Source: Opitutales bacterium
GTDB taxonomy: Bacteria; Verrucomicrobiota; Verrucomicrobiia; Opitutales; JABSRG01
Direction: 5' to 3'
DNA: 36,460 nt
Assembly (NCBI GenBank): GCA_028280845.1
Contig: JANQKZ010000058.1
Span: 1-36,460 of the forward strand
Position 1 is the first letter of the stretch, and every line of letters starts with the position of its first letter. The notes below the pieces were generated by a model. It was not told the DNA's origin, made no database searches, and worked only from the letters and a program-made list of their open reading frames with translations. Shown piece by piece: positions 384 through 23,631 of the stretch. Both the position numbers and the translations under genes were made by a program.

Positions 384-1607
384 TTACCTTGGGGGATTAA
401 GGTGGGGGTTTTCGTACCAGAACACACCGAGGCCGGGGCCGCCTTCTCGTTCTTCACAGGTGAGGACGTCGAGATCTCCGTCGTGGTCGAGGTCGATTAA
501 TTCGATGCGGTCGAACTTGATGCCCTCAGGGCCGCTGAGGTCGTGGGTTTGCCAGGAATCCGCACGCTGTTCGAGCCAGATCACTCCTCGCTTGGAGGTA
601 TAGGCTCTTTCTGCGCTCCAAACCAGGTCGGTGTGACCGTCGAGATTGAGGTCACCCATCGCGATGGCTTTGCCGAATCCCGTATCCAGGGAGGCACCCT
701 TCCGGATGATGGTCTCCTCCCAGGTTTGGGGTTGAGTTAAGGTTTGTTCAAACCAGCGGATGCCCTGATTCTTTATGGGGACGACGAGATGCAGAGTCTG
801 TTGGTTTTCTTCAATGTCGAGGAACATGTACTCTCCCGGGTCGCGGGAAATTTTCAGTTTCAGCCAAGCCTGGTCAGCAGTGAGATTGTCCTTTGGATGA
901 ATCAGGCCGTAGACTCCGGCCTCCGGGCCCCTGCGATCGACATAAACCAGATCTGGCTGGTCATCTTCGTTCAGGTCCAGGTAGCGCAGGGACATGATCC
1001 ACATTGCAGGGGTGAGCGGATGTAAGGTCCATGCATCGAGGTCTCTGGGATTTGAGGGGGATCTTAGCCAGCTGACCTGGCCGTGGGGGTTTTTGGATCC
1101 CAGAAAGAGGTCCATGCCATTTTTTCCATCAATGTCAGCGGGTAGGGCGAACATCCATTTAGAGGCGCCCTGGGTGACGGGGATGGGTTCGGTTTCCCAC
1201 TTCGACGCATCCATGAAGTGCTGGGGATCGGAGGGAGCCCAGTGGACGAAGATCGATTGAGTTTGGCCTTCGGCACTGCTGATGATGTCGGTGGTTCCAT
1301 CACCATCCAAGTCGGAGAAGACGGCGTCTTCAACGTAGGGGACCCGTCCGACGGTGACGGCCGGCCAGGGATCTTTGGCATTTTCGGGGCCGGGGTTGAG
1401 GTAGAGGCGAACGACGCCTTCTTCTTCCCAACCTGTGGCGATGTCCGGGAAGCCGTCACGATTGGCATCGCCGAGTCGGACGCCATCGGCGCCAGCGTAA
1501 CCGGCGTCGATGGCGTGCCGGGTCCAGGCGGATTCCAGGTCGGGACCCATGGCAAGGACCACCCCCAGGAGGGCGGGAAAATGGAAAGGCCGGAATCGGA
1601 TGAACAT
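384..1607 (-). CDS. Secreted FG-GAP/VCBS repeat protein
   Basis: A 407-residue protein with a short N-terminal hydrophobic segment (FPALLGVVLAMG, residues 10-21) that probably acts as a signal peptide. At least six calcium-loop motifs of the FG-GAP/VCBS type are visible, for example GDANRDGFPDIATG, DLDGDGTTDIISS, DLNEDDQPDLVYV, DLNLDGHTDLVWS and DLDHDGDLDVLTC, spread over nearly the whole length. This predicts a calcium-binding beta-propeller exported from the cytoplasm. Such proteins are frequent beside carbohydrate enzymes in Verrucomicrobia and Planctomycetes and are thought to bind glycans or proteins; no catalytic residues are evident. The start lies 3 bases after the stop of the upstream BNR_4 gene, so the two are almost certainly co-transcribed and perhaps translationally coupled. 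No Shine-Dalgarno is visible. Confidence 0.85.
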   Translation of the reverse strand: MFIRFRPFHFPALLGVVLAMGPDLESAWTRHAIDAGYAGADGVRLGDANRDGFPDIATGWEEEGVVRLYLNPGPENAKDPWPAVTVGRVPYVEDAVFSDLDGDGTTDIISSAEGQTQSIFVHWAPSDPQHFMDASKWETEPIPVTQGASKWMFALPADIDGKNGMDLFLGSKNPHGQVSWLRSPSNPRDLDAWTLHPLTPAMWIMSLRYLDLNEDDQPDLVYVDRRGPEAGVYGLIHPKDNLTADQAWLKLKISRDPGEYMFLDIEENQQTLHLVVPIKNQGIRWFEQTLTQPQTWEETIIRKGASLDTGFGKAIAMGDLNLDGHTDLVWSAERAYTSKRGVIWLEQRADSWQTHDLSGPEGIKFDRIELIDLDHDGDLDVLTCEEREGGPGLGVFWYENPHLNPPR

Positions 1608-1610
1608 GGG

Positions 1611-2996
1611 CTAATCCGTGAACATGAGGAACCCGCGGGCGTCCGGGGTTGTGCTATCGGGCCAGCCGTAGCAGATGGCCAAGCCAGGGGCTTCAGAGCC
1701 GTCCATCCGGATGACGGGGCGAATGTTGTTGAAGCGCCAACCCGGGTACTTTTTGGGATCCGGGGTCCGGTCTCGCTCGAATTCCCAGGTGGCTCCACCG
1801 TCGGAGGATATCCATTCCTCAATACGTCCCCCGCCGTGGCGGTCCATGATCCCATCTCCAAGCTGGCCGGGCTCGGTCACGATAAGGAAGGCGGTCCAGA
1901 TTCCTTCTGGGGATTGCACGATACGTCCCACATTCCAGGAGTGGCCGGCGGAGCGGATTTTGGAATGCACCCACGTTCCATCCTCCCATCGAAGGAAGTA
2001 GTAATCGAGGAGATCGGGGGTGTCACCGGACAACACATGAAGGATGGTGGGGTTGCCCTCCCGATCAAAATTGATATCGGGAGGAATCCCGGTAAAGCGC
2101 AGCTCGGTATCCCAAATCAGGCACTCTTCCATGGCCTGATCGATGTGGATGGGGGTCTGGAGTAGATCGCCCCGGGAGTTGGTAACTGCGCCCGTATTTA
2201 AATCCACCTGGATGTGGAACAGGTTATATTTCTGAGCCCCGTTATCGAAGGGGAGTTGGTATCGCGGGTTGAAAAAGCGATCGGGATCTTTGGCTTTGTT
2301 GTCATCGTAATCGACGAAGACCACGTGAAGGGTTTGTCCATCGGGAGACACCTTGGCGGTGTGGTAGCCTGACCAATCCAGGCGGCCTTGGGAATCCAGG
2401 TCGGTGAGATCGTGTTCGGGACCATCCCAGAGGATGCCATTGGAATCAGTGATGCGGTAGGTCCAGGAACTGGTGTGCCCGTAGGTTCGATAGAAGAGGA
2501 GTGTCCGGTTCTCTGGGAGGATAAAGAAATGGGGATAAGAAATATAAAAGGGGAAGCCGTCTCCATGCGTCCAATCTTCAAGGCTGGTTCCCAGGTCCTC
2601 CGGTTTGAGGGTGACCAGATGGGATCCGGTGCTGCGATGACAGCCAGACAGGATCTGGAGGCGGCCTTTATCGTCTGGCCAGATGAAGGGCCCGTCATGA
2701 TGATCGGTGCTGTAGGGGCCGAGCGCGAAGGGAGCCGAGAATGACCGGGAATCGGGATCCCAGGTAGTCACCATCGACCTGGCCCACACTCTCCGGGGGT
2801 TGGCCGGCATGGCGGCTCCCTGGTAGGCAATGAAGACGCGGCCATCGGATCCCTCGATGGCGACCGGTCCGGCCCGGCGATCATAGATCATTTTATAGGC
2901 CCCGGTTTCGGCGAAGACCGCGTAGTCGGGTGTGGCGCTCGAGAGGTTGGTGAGGGAGAAAAGGAAAAGCAATATTGGGGAAACGGTGCGCTGCAT
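1611..2996 (-). CDS. BNR_4-type beta-propeller protein, candidate polysaccharide lyase
   Basis: A 461-residue secreted protein: signal peptide at residues 1-21 (hydrophobic PILLFLFSLTNLSSA), then a propeller-like body ending in ISSDGGATWEF, a BNR Asp-box. The region around residues 98-120 (DHHDGP, then SGCH) resembles the BNR_4 family, which includes the ulvan lyases PL24 and PL25 and related rhamnose-glucuronate enzymes. H100 and H120 are 20 residues apart, the spacing I recall for the paired catalytic histidines of PL25 (21 in PL24); R181 and a cluster of tyrosines (Y169, Y172, Y180, Y230) could complete the site. The likely role is cleavage of a uronic-acid-containing sulfated glycan outside the cytoplasm, in line with the sulfatases upstream. 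It could instead be a hydrolase or a binding propeller. It sits in the leftward sulfatase gene group, downstream of a 169-base gap with hairpin repeats. Confidence 0.75.
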   Translation of the reverse strand: MQRTVSPILLFLFSLTNLSSATPDYAVFAETGAYKMIYDRRAGPVAIEGSDGRVFIAYQGAAMPANPRRVWARSMVTTWDPDSRSFSAPFALGPYSTDHHDGPFIWPDDKGRLQILSGCHRSTGSHLVTLKPEDLGTSLEDWTHGDGFPFYISYPHFFILPENRTLLFYRTYGHTSSWTYRITDSNGILWDGPEHDLTDLDSQGRLDWSGYHTAKVSPDGQTLHVVFVDYDDNKAKDPDRFFNPRYQLPFDNGAQKYNLFHIQVDLNTGAVTNSRGDLLQTPIHIDQAMEECLIWDTELRFTGIPPDINFDREGNPTILHVLSGDTPDLLDYYFLRWEDGTWVHSKIRSAGHSWNVGRIVQSPEGIWTAFLIVTEPGQLGDGIMDRHGGGRIEEWISSDGGATWEFERDRTPDPKKYPGWRFNNIRPVIRMDGSEAPGLAICYGWPDSTTPDARGFLMFTD

Positions 2997-3165: not shown

Positions 3166-4797
3166 TCAGTTGAGGTTGTGGCCGCGGACTGCGTTCAGAG
3201 TCTTTTGCATGGCCTTTACTTTTTCAGGGTGATGGAAAAAGCGGTTGTCCGTTTCGGCGGGATCTACGCGTAAGTTGTAGAGTTGTCCGGTCGGTTCACC
3301 AAACCGGACATCGAAGGTGACGGGGGTGGAGAATCCGCCGGAACCGGGTTTCTCGATATATTTCCAGTCCCCTTGGCGCCAGGCGAAGTGCGCGGCGGAG
3401 GAGGAGTGCATCATGATCCCGGGTTGGTCCGGGACTTCCCTGGCCTGGCCGAGTAAAACCGGCAGGATGCTGTAGCTGTCCTCTCCATATTGGTTGGGTT
3501 GGTCGAGTCCGAGGATATCGGCGATGGTGGCGATTAAATGCGTAAGGGACGTCAGGGCGGGAGCATTGCTATGGGACGGAATGGTTCCGGGCCAGGAAGC
3601 GATGAAGGGGACCCGGTGGCCGCCTTCCCATATATCCCCTTTCATGCCCCGAAAGTGGGCAGCTCCCCGGTGGTTGTATTTGGCTGTCAAGGCGGGGACC
3701 CAATAGGGGCCATTATCGCTGGTAAAGATAACGAGGGTGTTTCTGGTGATTCCGGTTTCCTCGATAGTCTTTAAGACGGTCCCGATTTCATGGTCCATCA
3801 TCTCGACGAAGTCCCCATACGTCCCGGCAGAGGAGGTGCCTGCAAAATCCGGGGACGGCACCCAAGGGGTGTGCGGAGCAGCCAGGGGGAGATACAGGAA
3901 GAAGGGTTGATCGGAGTTGGCATGCTCCCGGATGTAGTCGACTGCCCGGCGGGTGAAGTTGGGAAGCACATCGGTGAAGTCAAAGCCCGGCGCCATGGGC
4001 CCCGCTCGCCAGAAGGCTTCCATGAATCCCTTGTCGAGATCGTTGCCGTCGGTCCAGTCTGTCGGGGGTTCGATGAGCGTATGGTTTTCCAGGTAGCAAT
4101 AGGGCGGGATGTCGAGGGAGGCCGGGAGGATGAATGAGTAACCGAACCCATAATTCCCGGGGCCGCCCGTGACCGGCTTGGAAAAGTCGATATGCTTTAA
4201 ATCCATGTTGCGCACAACGGATCCGCGCCAGCTTACGTCGGCCTGGTCCAGCTGGTGTTCGGGACCGGGCTTGAGAGCCCAATCGAGTCCAAGGTGCCAT
4301 TTGCCGATGACAGCCGTATGATAGCCGTGTTGGCGAAGGAGCTTGGCAACGGTGTTTTGGTTTGGATCGAGAAAATTTCGGCCATAGCTCCAGGTGACGC
4401 CCTGCTTGAGGTCGGTTCGCCAGCAGTATTGCCCGGTCAAGATACCATAGCGGGTGGGGGTGCAGACGGAGGAGGGGGTATGAGCATCGGTGAAGCGCAT
4501 GCCCTGGCGGGCCAAGGTGTCGAGATGCGGGGTCTCGATTTTGGAGTTGGGATTGAAGGCGGAGATATCCCCATAGCCCAGGTCATCGGCGAGGATGTAG
4601 ATGATGTTGGGGCGGGGGGTGGTTGCGGCGGAGGTGAGGGAAAAAAGGAGGGAGATGAGGAGGAGGGTTAGGGTAAATAGGATGCGTGATGCGGGATATG
4701 GGATACGTGATGCGGGATACGGGATGCGGGCGTGTGGATGCAAAAGGTTTGATGCGGGGTACGGGATGCGGGTATTAGGATGGAAAGTGGGAGGCAT
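3166..4797 (-). CDS. S1 family sulfatase with repeat-extended signal sequence
   Basis: A secreted type I sulfatase, 543 residues from the ATG at 4797. That start lies 19 bases past the upstream sulfatase stop; a longer frame to 4908 would overlap the upstream gene by 92 bases and is less likely. C112 in CTPTR is the residue expected to become formylglycine. ADD (70-72) supplies calcium ligands, and GKWHLG and TSDNGP are standard active-site motifs. The sequence RYGILTGQYCWRT resembles galactosamine- or galactose-sulfate-type S1 enzymes, but the subfamily cannot be assigned by eye. The odd part is the N-terminus: residues 5-39 are encoded by a heptanucleotide repeat giving RIPYPAS copies before the hydrophobic core ILFTLTLLLISLLFSL (39-54). 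The gene follows another sulfatase in the same operon. No good Shine-Dalgarno is seen. Confidence 0.92.
   Translation of the reverse strand: MPPTFHPNTRIPYPASNLLHPHARIPYPASRIPYPASRILFTLTLLLISLLFSLTSAATTPRPNIIYILADDLGYGDISAFNPNSKIETPHLDTLARQGMRFTDAHTPSSVCTPTRYGILTGQYCWRTDLKQGVTWSYGRNFLDPNQNTVAKLLRQHGYHTAVIGKWHLGLDWALKPGPEHQLDQADVSWRGSVVRNMDLKHIDFSKPVTGGPGNYGFGYSFILPASLDIPPYCYLENHTLIEPPTDWTDGNDLDKGFMEAFWRAGPMAPGFDFTDVLPNFTRRAVDYIREHANSDQPFFLYLPLAAPHTPWVPSPDFAGTSSAGTYGDFVEMMDHEIGTVLKTIEETGITRNTLVIFTSDNGPYWVPALTAKYNHRGAAHFRGMKGDIWEGGHRVPFIASWPGTIPSHSNAPALTSLTHLIATIADILGLDQPNQYGEDSYSILPVLLGQAREVPDQPGIMMHSSSAAHFAWRQGDWKYIEKPGSGGFSTPVTFDVRFGEPTGQLYNLRVDPAETDNRFFHHPEKVKAMQKTLNAVRGHNLN
4681..4785. repeat. 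Heptanucleotide tandem repeat, 15 units, inside the sulfatase signal sequence
   Basis: Fifteen consecutive 7-base units keep perfect register from 4681 to 4785 on the + strand, with consensus GATGCGG. Five units are exact (4688, 4709, 4723, 4751, 4765); others are one- or two-base variants such as GATACGG, GATACGT and GATATGG, and a few are strongly diverged. The repeat lies between the ATG at 4797 and the hydrophobic core of the signal peptide. The array is 105 bases (35 codons), so it is in frame now, but gain or loss of one or two units would shift the frame. It resembles the short tandemly repeated heptamers (STRR) described in cyanobacteria. Confidence 0.9.
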
Positions 4798-4816
4798 CGG
4801 AGTGGTGGTTCCAGGG

Positions 4817-6397
4817 CTATTTTTGGCTTCCGCCCGCTGCTTTCTGACTTTGAAATTCCGGGTTGTATTCGCTTCGGGTGCTGAAACCTGGGAAGAGGCG
4901 CATGACACTGTGGCGGGGGTAGGATTCGAAGATATCTCCGTTTCCGTGGACGCGGGGGTCCCCCTGTTCCTGAAGGAGCTCCAGCAGTTGCTGGTGTAAG
5001 GTTTGCTTGATTTGGGAGTAGCCTGGATTGCGTGAGAGGTCGTTTAAACACCATGGATCGTTGACGATGTTATACAATTGGAACTCTGGCCGTTTGCCGG
5101 TGGCGAGTTGAACGAGGTCGGGGTAAGCATCAGGATTGGTCAGGAGGTAGGTCTTGGTGGCGGAGCTGTCGATATCTTCGTAGCCCAAGTCAAAGCCCTT
5201 GTAATCCGGAGAAAAGGAACCATCCAGTTGTTCGGGAGTGAGCCCTTCGGGGATGGGATTCCCCGCGGGCCAGCGATCGGGTTTCATATTCCAGATCAGG
5301 AGGAATTCGTCAGTGCGGATGGAGCGGGCGGGATAGCCCAGATTATCGGGACGGGCATGGGTGTGGCGTTCGCGACCAGAGAGGGCAAAGTCCCGGTGGG
5401 GCTGGCCCTGGGTAAGGAAAGGAACCAGGCTCTTGCCGGTGGCCTCGGGCAAGGGCGAGGCACCGGCCATCTCCAGGAAGGTGGGAGCGAGGTCGGTGTG
5501 GCTGACCAGTTCACGGGTAACCCGCCCGCCAGGGAAGAACCTGGGACCGGCGATGACGAGAGGGACATGGATACCAAATTCCTGCAGATTCGCTTTGGCG
5601 TAAGGAAAGGGCATGCCATTGTCTGAGGTCACCACCACAATGGTATTTTCCAGTTCTCCGATGGATTCCAGGTGGTCCAGCATGCGACCCAGATGTTGAT
5701 CAAACCACTCAATTTCAAAGGCGTAGTCGAGGTAGTCGGTCTGGGTCACTTTTGACCGCGGAATGAATGGCGGGGGGACGGCTTCGTCGAGTGATTTTCC
5801 GTTGCTCAAGCCGGAGCCATATTCGTAATCCAGATGCGGCTCACTGGCGCCATACCAGAAAAAGAAGGGTTGATCCTTTTTTCGATTTTCCAGAAAGGCT
5901 TCGAAGTTCGAGGCATAATCGTTGCGTTTAATACCCGTTGTCGGGGGCTCCAGGGTGGCATCGGCATATCGGGTTCCCACCGGGTTTCGATCCCAGCCGG
6001 CATCTTCCCAATTGCCCGGGGACCACGGTTTGCCGGTAAACCCTACATGGTAGCCATGGTTCTCCAGAGCCCGGGTAAATACCTGAAACTTAGCAGGGAA
6101 ATAACTGCCGTGAGTTCCGGCTTCTTCGAGCTGCCATATGTTGCGGCCTGTCAGGATGGCAGCGCGGTTGGGGCTGCATTGAGGTGCTGCGACAAAGGCG
6201 CTGTGAAAGAGGAGGCCTTCGGCGGCCATGCGATCAAAGGCGGGCGTTTTGATGCCAAAGTCGCCGTAGGCCGAGGCATGAGGGTAGGACTGATCGTCGG
6301 AAATAGCGAAGAGGAAATTGGGTCTTTTCGATTCCTCCGATTGCAGATTGGTGGAAAGGAACAAAATTAAAGCGGCAAGGGGAATGAACGGTTTCAT
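4817..6397 (-). CDS. S1 family sulfatase (CSPNR type)
   Basis: A 526-residue secreted sulfatase with signal peptide at residues 1-20 (PLAALILFLSTNLQS). The formylglycine site is C74 in CSPNR, which keeps the Cys-X-Pro-X-Arg core but has Asn at the fourth position where Ser, Thr or Ala is usual. SDD (33-35) provides metal ligands; TSDNGMPFPYAK is the second metal site. The usual GKWHxG is replaced by TGKPWSPG, so the histidine at that position is absent. This pattern is close to the heparan-N-sulfatase-like part of the S1 family as I recall it, but the substrate is unknown. It is the first gene of the leftward group (promoter region 6398-6722) and its stop is 19 bases before the next sulfatase start. 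Confidence 0.92.
   Translation of the reverse strand: MKPFIPLAALILFLSTNLQSEESKRPNFLFAISDDQSYPHASAYGDFGIKTPAFDRMAAEGLLFHSAFVAAPQCSPNRAAILTGRNIWQLEEAGTHGSYFPAKFQVFTRALENHGYHVGFTGKPWSPGNWEDAGWDRNPVGTRYADATLEPPTTGIKRNDYASNFEAFLENRKKDQPFFFWYGASEPHLDYEYGSGLSNGKSLDEAVPPPFIPRSKVTQTDYLDYAFEIEWFDQHLGRMLDHLESIGELENTIVVVTSDNGMPFPYAKANLQEFGIHVPLVIAGPRFFPGGRVTRELVSHTDLAPTFLEMAGASPLPEATGKSLVPFLTQGQPHRDFALSGRERHTHARPDNLGYPARSIRTDEFLLIWNMKPDRWPAGNPIPEGLTPEQLDGSFSPDYKGFDLGYEDIDSSATKTYLLTNPDAYPDLVQLATGKRPEFQLYNIVNDPWCLNDLSRNPGYSQIKQTLHQQLLELLQEQGDPRVHGNGDIFESYPRHSVMRLFPGFSTRSEYNPEFQSQKAAGGSQK

Positions 6398-20463: not shown

Positions 20464-23631
<3,168 letters not shown>

What the first reader, a model, noticed from the sequence alone, without database searches (positions are those of the whole stretch)
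1611..2996. BNR_4 propeller with paired histidines spaced as in ulvan lyases
H100 (in DHHDGP) and H120 (in SGCH) are 20 residues apart, as I recall for the catalytic pair of PL25 and close to PL24, and an arginine (R181) lies at a matching distance (+61 from the second histidine). The gene is in an operon with two sulfatases. It could be a divergent member of PL24, PL25 or a neighbouring family, or a new one.
Basis: partly seen in the sequence, partly recalled or inferred. Interest (0 to 1): 0.6.

Follow-up and report, generated by a model that had tools for sequence, protein, structure and literature searches.

The report
Uncharacterised propeller sugar lyase beside sulfatases
This gene most likely encodes a secreted enzyme that cuts sulfated, uronic-acid-containing polysaccharides by elimination; it belongs to an uncharacterised branch related to, but separate from, the PL25 ulvan lyases, and it recurs beside sulfatases in bacteria of several phyla.

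Summary
The gene (minus strand, 1611-2996) encodes a probably secreted BNR_4 seven-bladed propeller. H100 and H120 are conserved and align with the PL25 pair H123/H143. The proposed arginine R181 is wrong: it is conserved in only 53% of relatives. The charge neutraliser is R170, 16 residues after Y154, the spacing seen in PL25 and PL42. With D98 this rebuilds the His-His-Asp/Tyr/Arg lyase centre shared by PL24, PL25 and PL42. That centre occurs in 39 of 42 other BNR_4 proteins sampled, so it marks the superfamily, not ulvan lyases.

The predicted fold (pLDDT 90) matches PL25 best (Z 35.9), closely followed by GH145 and PL42. In a tree the protein falls in a 100/100-supported clade of its own, found in at least six phyla. 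PL25's N122/K125 and three of its four zinc ligands are missing, so I do not file it as PL25. The clade lies beside orthologous sulfatases and includes sulfatase and chondroitinase-B fusions. The closest orthologue (70%) sits among GH106 and GH78 rhamnosidases, sulfatases and rhamnonate dehydratase. Best reading: a new-clade uronate lyase for a sulfated, probably rhamnose-containing, glycan. Activity is untested.

The parts
1611..2996 (-). BNR_4 seven-bladed propeller, candidate uronate lyase, 461 aa with a likely signal peptide (residues 1-21, by eye)
2703..2705 (-). D98 codon, pivot aspartate of the His-His-Asp triad (PL42 Asp83)
   Evidence: 100% in 68 relatives; triad described in PMC10951650
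2697..2699 (-). H100 codon, proposed base/acid (PL25 H123, PL42 H85)
   Evidence: 100% in 68 relatives; aligned
2637..2639 (-). H120 codon, second histidine (PL25 H143, PL42 H105)
   Evidence: 97%
2535..2537 (-). Y154 codon (PL25 Y188, PL42 Y150)
   Evidence: 100%
2487..2489 (-).
   Evidence: 97%
2475..2477 (-). H174 codon, position of the PL25 zinc ligand H208; the other three zinc ligands are absent
   Evidence: 96%
2364..2366 (-). Y211 codon, one column from PL25 Y246
   Evidence: 100%
384..1607 (-). FG-GAP repeat protein, starts 3 bases after the lyase stop; 65% orthologue also near the lyase in L121
3166..4908 (-). Sulfatase, Cys type (CTPTR); annotated start uncertain because of the repeat at 4680-4730
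4817..6397 (-). Sulfatase, Cys type (CSPNR), SGSH_C domain

Best explanation
It is a secreted polysaccharide lyase of the BNR_4 seven-bladed propeller superfamily, in a clade of its own beside PL25. Inferred mechanism: R170, helped by H120 and Y154, binds and neutralises a uronate carboxylate at subsite +1. H100, tuned through D98 and H120, takes the C5 proton and then protonates the leaving oxygen at C4 (syn beta-elimination), leaving a 4,5-unsaturated uronic acid. Neighbouring sulfatases and, in the closest relative, rhamnosidases act on the same glycan. The likely substrate of this sequence is a sulfated uronate glycan containing rhamnose (ulvan-like). Shown by computation: predicted fold, aligned and conserved catalytic residues, clade, gene context. 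Inferred: activity, exact chemistry, substrate.
For: AlphaFold model pLDDT 89.8, best match PL25 Z 35.9 over 389 residues. D98, H100, Y154, Y211 invariant, H120 and R170 97% in 68 relatives, in register with the PL25 catalytic residues. Tree clade 100/100. Two orthologous sulfatase groups beside the lyase in several phyla; near genes are sulfatases twice as often as farther ones in the closer half of the clade, p 0.008. Fusions to a sulfatase, a chondroitinase-B domain and an esterase. Closest orthologue locus: GH106, GH78, three or more sulfatases, L-rhamnonate dehydratase; the sulfatase-GH106 pair is kept in this genome at 79% and 73% identity.
Against: No activity has been measured for any clade member that I found. 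The catalytic set is common to BNR_4, including GH145, of which one member also acts as a hydrolase from the other face. I could not measure distances in the model. In this genome the rhamnosidase pair is on another contig, and the GH78 and dehydratase homologues are only 50% and 37% alike. Sulfatases are abundant here (about 100), and the distant half of the clade shows no significant sulfatase excess.
Confidence: 0.68

Rival explanations
1. A divergent true member of PL25 that degrades ulvan exactly as the known PL25 ulvan lyases do.
For: PL25 is the nearest solved family by profile (E 1e-29), profile-profile (E 1.5e-36) and fold (Z 35.9). The closest orthologue lies with rhamnosidases and sulfatases, and a recurring sulfatase is closest to the ulvan sulfatase 6HHM.
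Against: Lacks N122, K125 and three of four zinc ligands; separate 100/100 clade on a long branch; PL25 HMM E 8e-6 for this protein; lacks 11 residues between the second His and the Tyr. Characterised PL25 members share about 45-51% identity with the most divergent one (PMC13193363); this has 18% to 5UAM.
Confidence: 0.15
2. A lyase for glycosaminoglycan-like or other sulfated uronate glycans without rhamnose (for instance of sponges or animals).
For: One member is fused to a chondroitinase-B domain; a recurring sulfatase also resembles iduronate-2-sulfatase; SGSH_C sulfatases are frequent neighbours. Rhamnosidases were seen beside only one lineage.
Against: GH106, GH78 and rhamnonate dehydratase beside the closest orthologue.
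Confidence: 0.25
3. A glycoside hydrolase working from the posterior face, as GH145 BT3686 does with His48.
For: GH145 folds match nearly as well as PL25 (Z 33-35).
Against: This protein has no histidine before residue 99, so the BT3686 nucleophile is absent; GH145 lies across a 100/100 branch; the anterior lyase set is intact, and GH145 members themselves show lyase activity through it (PMC8406133).
Confidence: 0.04
4. A non-catalytic sugar-binding propeller (lectin or dead enzyme).
For: Photorhabdus lectins also match the fold (Z about 25).
Against: Enzymes match much better (Z 33-36), and the full catalytic set is 97-100% conserved across phyla. Paralogues that have lost it (H120 to R, R170 to K) form a different clade.
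Confidence: 0.06

Closest known systems
PL25 ulvan lyase PLSV_3936 (PDB 5UAM, 5UAS)
   Same: Fold (Z 35.9), His-His-Asp triad, Tyr, Arg; position of one zinc ligand (H174); RxxGHxxxW-like stretch
   Different: 18% identity; no N122/K125 equivalents; zinc ligands H264, C266, H278 absent; 11 residues fewer between second His and Tyr; separate clade
PL42 L-rhamnose-alpha-1,4-D-glucuronate lyase FoRham1 (7ESK, 7ESL)
   Same: Fold (Z 33.6), catalytic set with the 20- and 16-residue steps
   Different: 12% identity; Ser170 in place of H174; other side of a 100/100 branch
GH145 (BT3686, BACCELL_00856)
   Same: Fold (Z 33-35) and anterior His/His/Tyr/Arg
   Different: 13-15% identity; posterior His48 absent; different clade
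PL24 ulvan lyase LOR_107, Uly1
   Same: Propeller with paired His and an Arg neutraliser
   Different: Clearly weaker fold match (Z 23-24), 11% identity; His146/His167 are 21 apart

Membership tests
Pfam BNR_4 (PF15892) | Score over the gathering cut-off of 27.3 bits | tested here: met
   54.3 bits
PL25 | Seven-bladed propeller fold of 5UAM | tested here: met
   Z 35.9, 389 residues aligned
PL25 | Catalytic His123, Tyr188, Arg204 (with His143 and Asp121) | tested here: met
   H100, Y154, R170, H120, D98 aligned and conserved
PL25 | Substrate residues Asn122 and Lys125 | tested here: not met
   H99 and G102; H/Q and A/G/S in the clade rows
PL25 | Zinc site His208, His264, Cys266, His278 | tested here: not met
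   Only His208 kept (H174); others Y230, D232, N252 in the tree alignment
PL25 | Match to a PL25 HMM at E below 1e-15 (dbCAN-style, recalled threshold; small home-made HMM of 4 rows) | tested here: not met
   P0001 8.4e-6; but 33 of 62 clade members pass
PL25 | Groups with PL25 in a tree | tested here: not met
   Two separate supported clades, 100/100 and 97/91; whether they are sisters is unresolved
PL25 | Ulvan lyase activity | not testable with these tools
   Needs an assay
PL42 | Groups with FoRham1 | tested here: not met
   Across a 100/100 branch, though the FoRham1 row is partial and long
PL42 | His85, His105, Tyr150, Arg166, Asp83 | tested here: met
   Same residues and spacing in the published numbering
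GH145 | Posterior catalytic His48 of BT3686 | tested here: not met
   No histidine before residue 99
PL24 | Sequence match to PL24 | tested here: inconclusive
   No profile hit at E 10, but the fold matches at Z 23-24

The most novel reading that the evidence does not exclude
The clade is an unrecognised polysaccharide-lyase family: a sulfatase-coupled relative of PL25 without its zinc site, in at least six phyla (Verrucomicrobiota, Planctomycetota, Acidobacteriota, Bacteroidota, Latescibacterota, Armatimonadota), acting on a sulfated uronate glycan not yet linked to any propeller lyase.
Probability: 0.5. Interest if true: 0.62.

Novelty: new variant of a known kind. Interest (0 to 1): 0.5.

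Why it matters
The BNR_4 superfamily holds several polysaccharide-lyase families and many more unassigned proteins. This clade combines a complete, conserved lyase centre with cross-phylum linkage to particular sulfatases, including a fusion, so its substrate is likely a sulfated uronate glycan. A positive assay would define a new lyase family and help to annotate the sulfatase-rich loci of Verrucomicrobiota and Planctomycetota, whose substrates are mostly unknown.

Tried and rejected
R181 as neutraliser: rejected, not conserved. Single-sequence phmmer against the PDB found only chance antibody light chains; the family profile was needed. NCBIfam: no match for the protein. A search of plasmids with P0001 found only distant BNR_4 proteins. 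Literature searches for this clade and for PL43 gave nothing relevant. The idea that the GH106/sulfatase block adjoins the window at a contig break was dropped: in this genome it lies inside contig C22 (223 kb), not at its end. The absence of PL24, PL42 and GH145 from the sequence-profile hits is not used as proof of unrelatedness, since their folds match. Sulfatase linkage of the whole clade: rejected, the excess is significant only in the closer half.

Full report
WHAT IS THERE. The finding's coordinates hold one open frame of 461 codons, on the minus strand. It matches Pfam BNR_4 (54 bits, E 1.7e-14) and nothing in NCBIfam. The first 21 residues look like a signal peptide (by eye). Two sulfatase genes lie directly upstream on the same strand (4817-6397 and 3166-4908), and an FG-GAP repeat protein starts 3 bases after its stop (384-1607). 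The window is a complete 36,460-base contig of a 4.8 Mb genome, so what lies beyond base 1 is unknown.

THE HISTIDINES ARE REAL, THE ARGININE IS NOT. By itself the spacing is weak: shuffles of the protein give an H-x19-H pair in 36% of cases and H-x19-H-x60-R in 2.7%. I collected 64 related loci from the species collection and further ones from whole genomes, and aligned 68 sequences. D98, H100, Y154 and Y211 are invariant, H120 and R170 are 97%, H174 is 96%; R181 is 53%. A profile of 62 relatives searched against the PDB finds the PL25 ulvan lyase at E 1e-29 in register with its catalytic residues (numbering checked): H123 with H100, H143 with H120, Y188 with Y154, R204 with R170. The 5UAS chain reads N at the H123 position in the same alignment. 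The Tyr-to-Arg step is 16 residues in PL25, in PL42 (Y150/R166, PMC8377490) and here. Between the second His and the Tyr the query has 11 residues fewer than PL25, which is why counting +61 landed on the wrong arginine. The invariant D98 is in the place of the pivot aspartate of the His-His-Asp triad described by neutron crystallography for PL42 and said to be shared by PL24, PL25 and PL42 (PMC10951650).

FOLD. AlphaFold2 with the 62-row alignment gives a model of pLDDT 89.8. Foldseek and VIA-align rank PL25 first (Z 35.9), then GH145 (33-35) and PL42 (32-34), then lectins (25) and PL24 (23-24). Differences under 1 are ties, so PL25 and the best GH145 chain are nearly level. I could not read coordinates. 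From the strand list, H100 precedes strand 104-107 and H120 follows strand 113-117; Y154 lies early in strand 152-160 and R170 ends strand 164-170, so each pair sits at the same end of a hairpin, while R181 lies late in strand 177-183.

WHERE IT BELONGS. I placed 21 members of the clade in a tree with PL25 sequences (5UAM and plasmid-borne homologues), GH145 and PL42 chains and about 35 other BNR_4 proteins. The clade is one group with 100/100 support on a long branch (0.94); PL25 is another (97/91); GH145 and PL42 lie together beyond a 100/100 branch. The order of the deep groups is not resolved and some branches are long. Profile comparisons agree: clade against PL25 E 1.5e-36, clade against a GH145-like set 2e-15, PL25 against the same set 3e-14. 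The His/His/Tyr/Arg set is found in 39 of 42 other BNR_4 rows that cover the region, so it marks the superfamily and cannot by itself identify an ulvan lyase. PL25's own marks, N122, K125 and zinc ligands H264, C266 and H278 (PMC13193363), are absent; H208 is kept as H174. P0001 matches a small PL25 HMM at 8.4e-6; other clade members reach 4e-29. I therefore treat it as a clade beside PL25, not a member. The clade's own motif is DHHx[AG]P[VIF][IVL]W, then GCH, SYP and RxxGHxxxW.

CONTEXT ACROSS PHYLA. Clade members come from Verrucomicrobiota, Planctomycetota, Acidobacteriota, Bacteroidota, Latescibacterota, Armatimonadota and Sumerlaeota (record titles). In the closer half, 19 of 30 loci have a sulfatase within two genes, and near genes are sulfatases twice as often as farther ones (27% against 14%, p 0.008); the distant half shows no significant excess. 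These genomes are rich in sulfatases (about 100 in this one), so the stronger evidence is identity: two sulfatase groups recur near the lyase at 53-74% and 48-68% identity in different phyla, and one of them is fused to the propeller in a Planctomycetaceae genome. The two sulfatases in the window itself belong to neither group by close similarity. Another member is fused to a chondroitinase-B domain, another to an esterase. Neighbours also include glucuronoyl and other esterases. The fusions come from metagenome assemblies and were not checked against reads.

THE CLOSEST ORTHOLOGUE POINTS TO RHAMNOSE. In the 70% orthologue (Opitutaceae MAG, L010/L121) the order is GH106 alpha-L-rhamnosidase, sulfatase, lyase, DUF1961, FG-GAP protein (65% to the window's), sulfatase, GH78 alpha-L-rhamnosidase, sulfatase, then L-rhamnonate dehydratase (585 bits against a cut-off of 393) about 11 kb on. 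In the window's genome the sulfatase-GH106 pair is kept at 79% and 73% identity, adjacent to each other, on another contig; the nearest GH78 and dehydratase homologues are only 50% and 37% alike. One GH88/105 candidate, the kind of enzyme that removes unsaturated uronic acids, is present elsewhere in the genome. The second recurring sulfatase is closest among solved structures to 6HHM, the S1_7 ulvan sulfatase P18 of Formosa (PMC9096561), and next to iduronate-2-sulfatase. Marine Verrucomicrobiota are reported to specialise in sulfated fucose- and rhamnose-rich glycans (PMC8857213).

MECHANISM. By homology with PL42 and PL25: R170, with H120 and Y154, holds the uronate carboxylate; H100 abstracts the C5 proton and then protonates the leaving oxygen; D98 links the two histidines. 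Whether Tyr or His is the base is disputed between the PL25 and PL42 studies; I follow the neutron study. The missing zinc ligands and the shorter stretch after H120 predict a differently shaped pocket from PL25 (inference).

VERDICT. A real, conserved lyase centre in an uncharacterised clade: a new variant of a known kind. I put lyase function at about 0.75 and a rhamnose-uronate substrate for this sequence at about 0.45.

Noticed in passing
L063:4885-7650 (+) and L047:7607-11350 (+): Clade members fused in one frame to a sulfatase (Planctomycetaceae MAG) and to a chondroitinase-B domain (Armatimonadota MAG).
   Followed up: partly
L077:997-3603 (-), own genome contig C17: Another BNR_4 domain of the same genome follows a heparinase II/III-like region in one open frame: a second lyase-plus-propeller design.
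   Followed up: partly
L078:1-1376, Alteromonas sp. 76-1 plasmid pAlt76: A GH145/PL42-like propeller lies one sulfatase away from a PL25 ulvan lyase, an uncharacterised companion in an ulvan locus.
   Followed up: partly
L007, L008, L075 (BNR_4 clade beginning YRGIWF): In this clade the second histidine reads R and the neutraliser reads K: swapped or lost lyase centre.
   Followed up: no
window 4680-4730: Tandem repeat GGATGCGGGATACG at the 5' end of the second sulfatase gene, read as odd RIPYPAS repeats; the true start is probably downstream.
   Followed up: no
window 20882-20951: tRNA-Leu predicted on the minus strand inside the GH2 gene; probably a false positive.
   Followed up: no
window 14756-35862: Five more sulfatases, a GH2 enzyme, a hybrid two-component regulator and a beta-helix protein: the contig looks like a second sulfated-glycan locus.
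   Followed up: no
L010:11400-12125 (+): A DUF1961 protein follows the lyase in the closest orthologue but is missing from the window.
   Followed up: no
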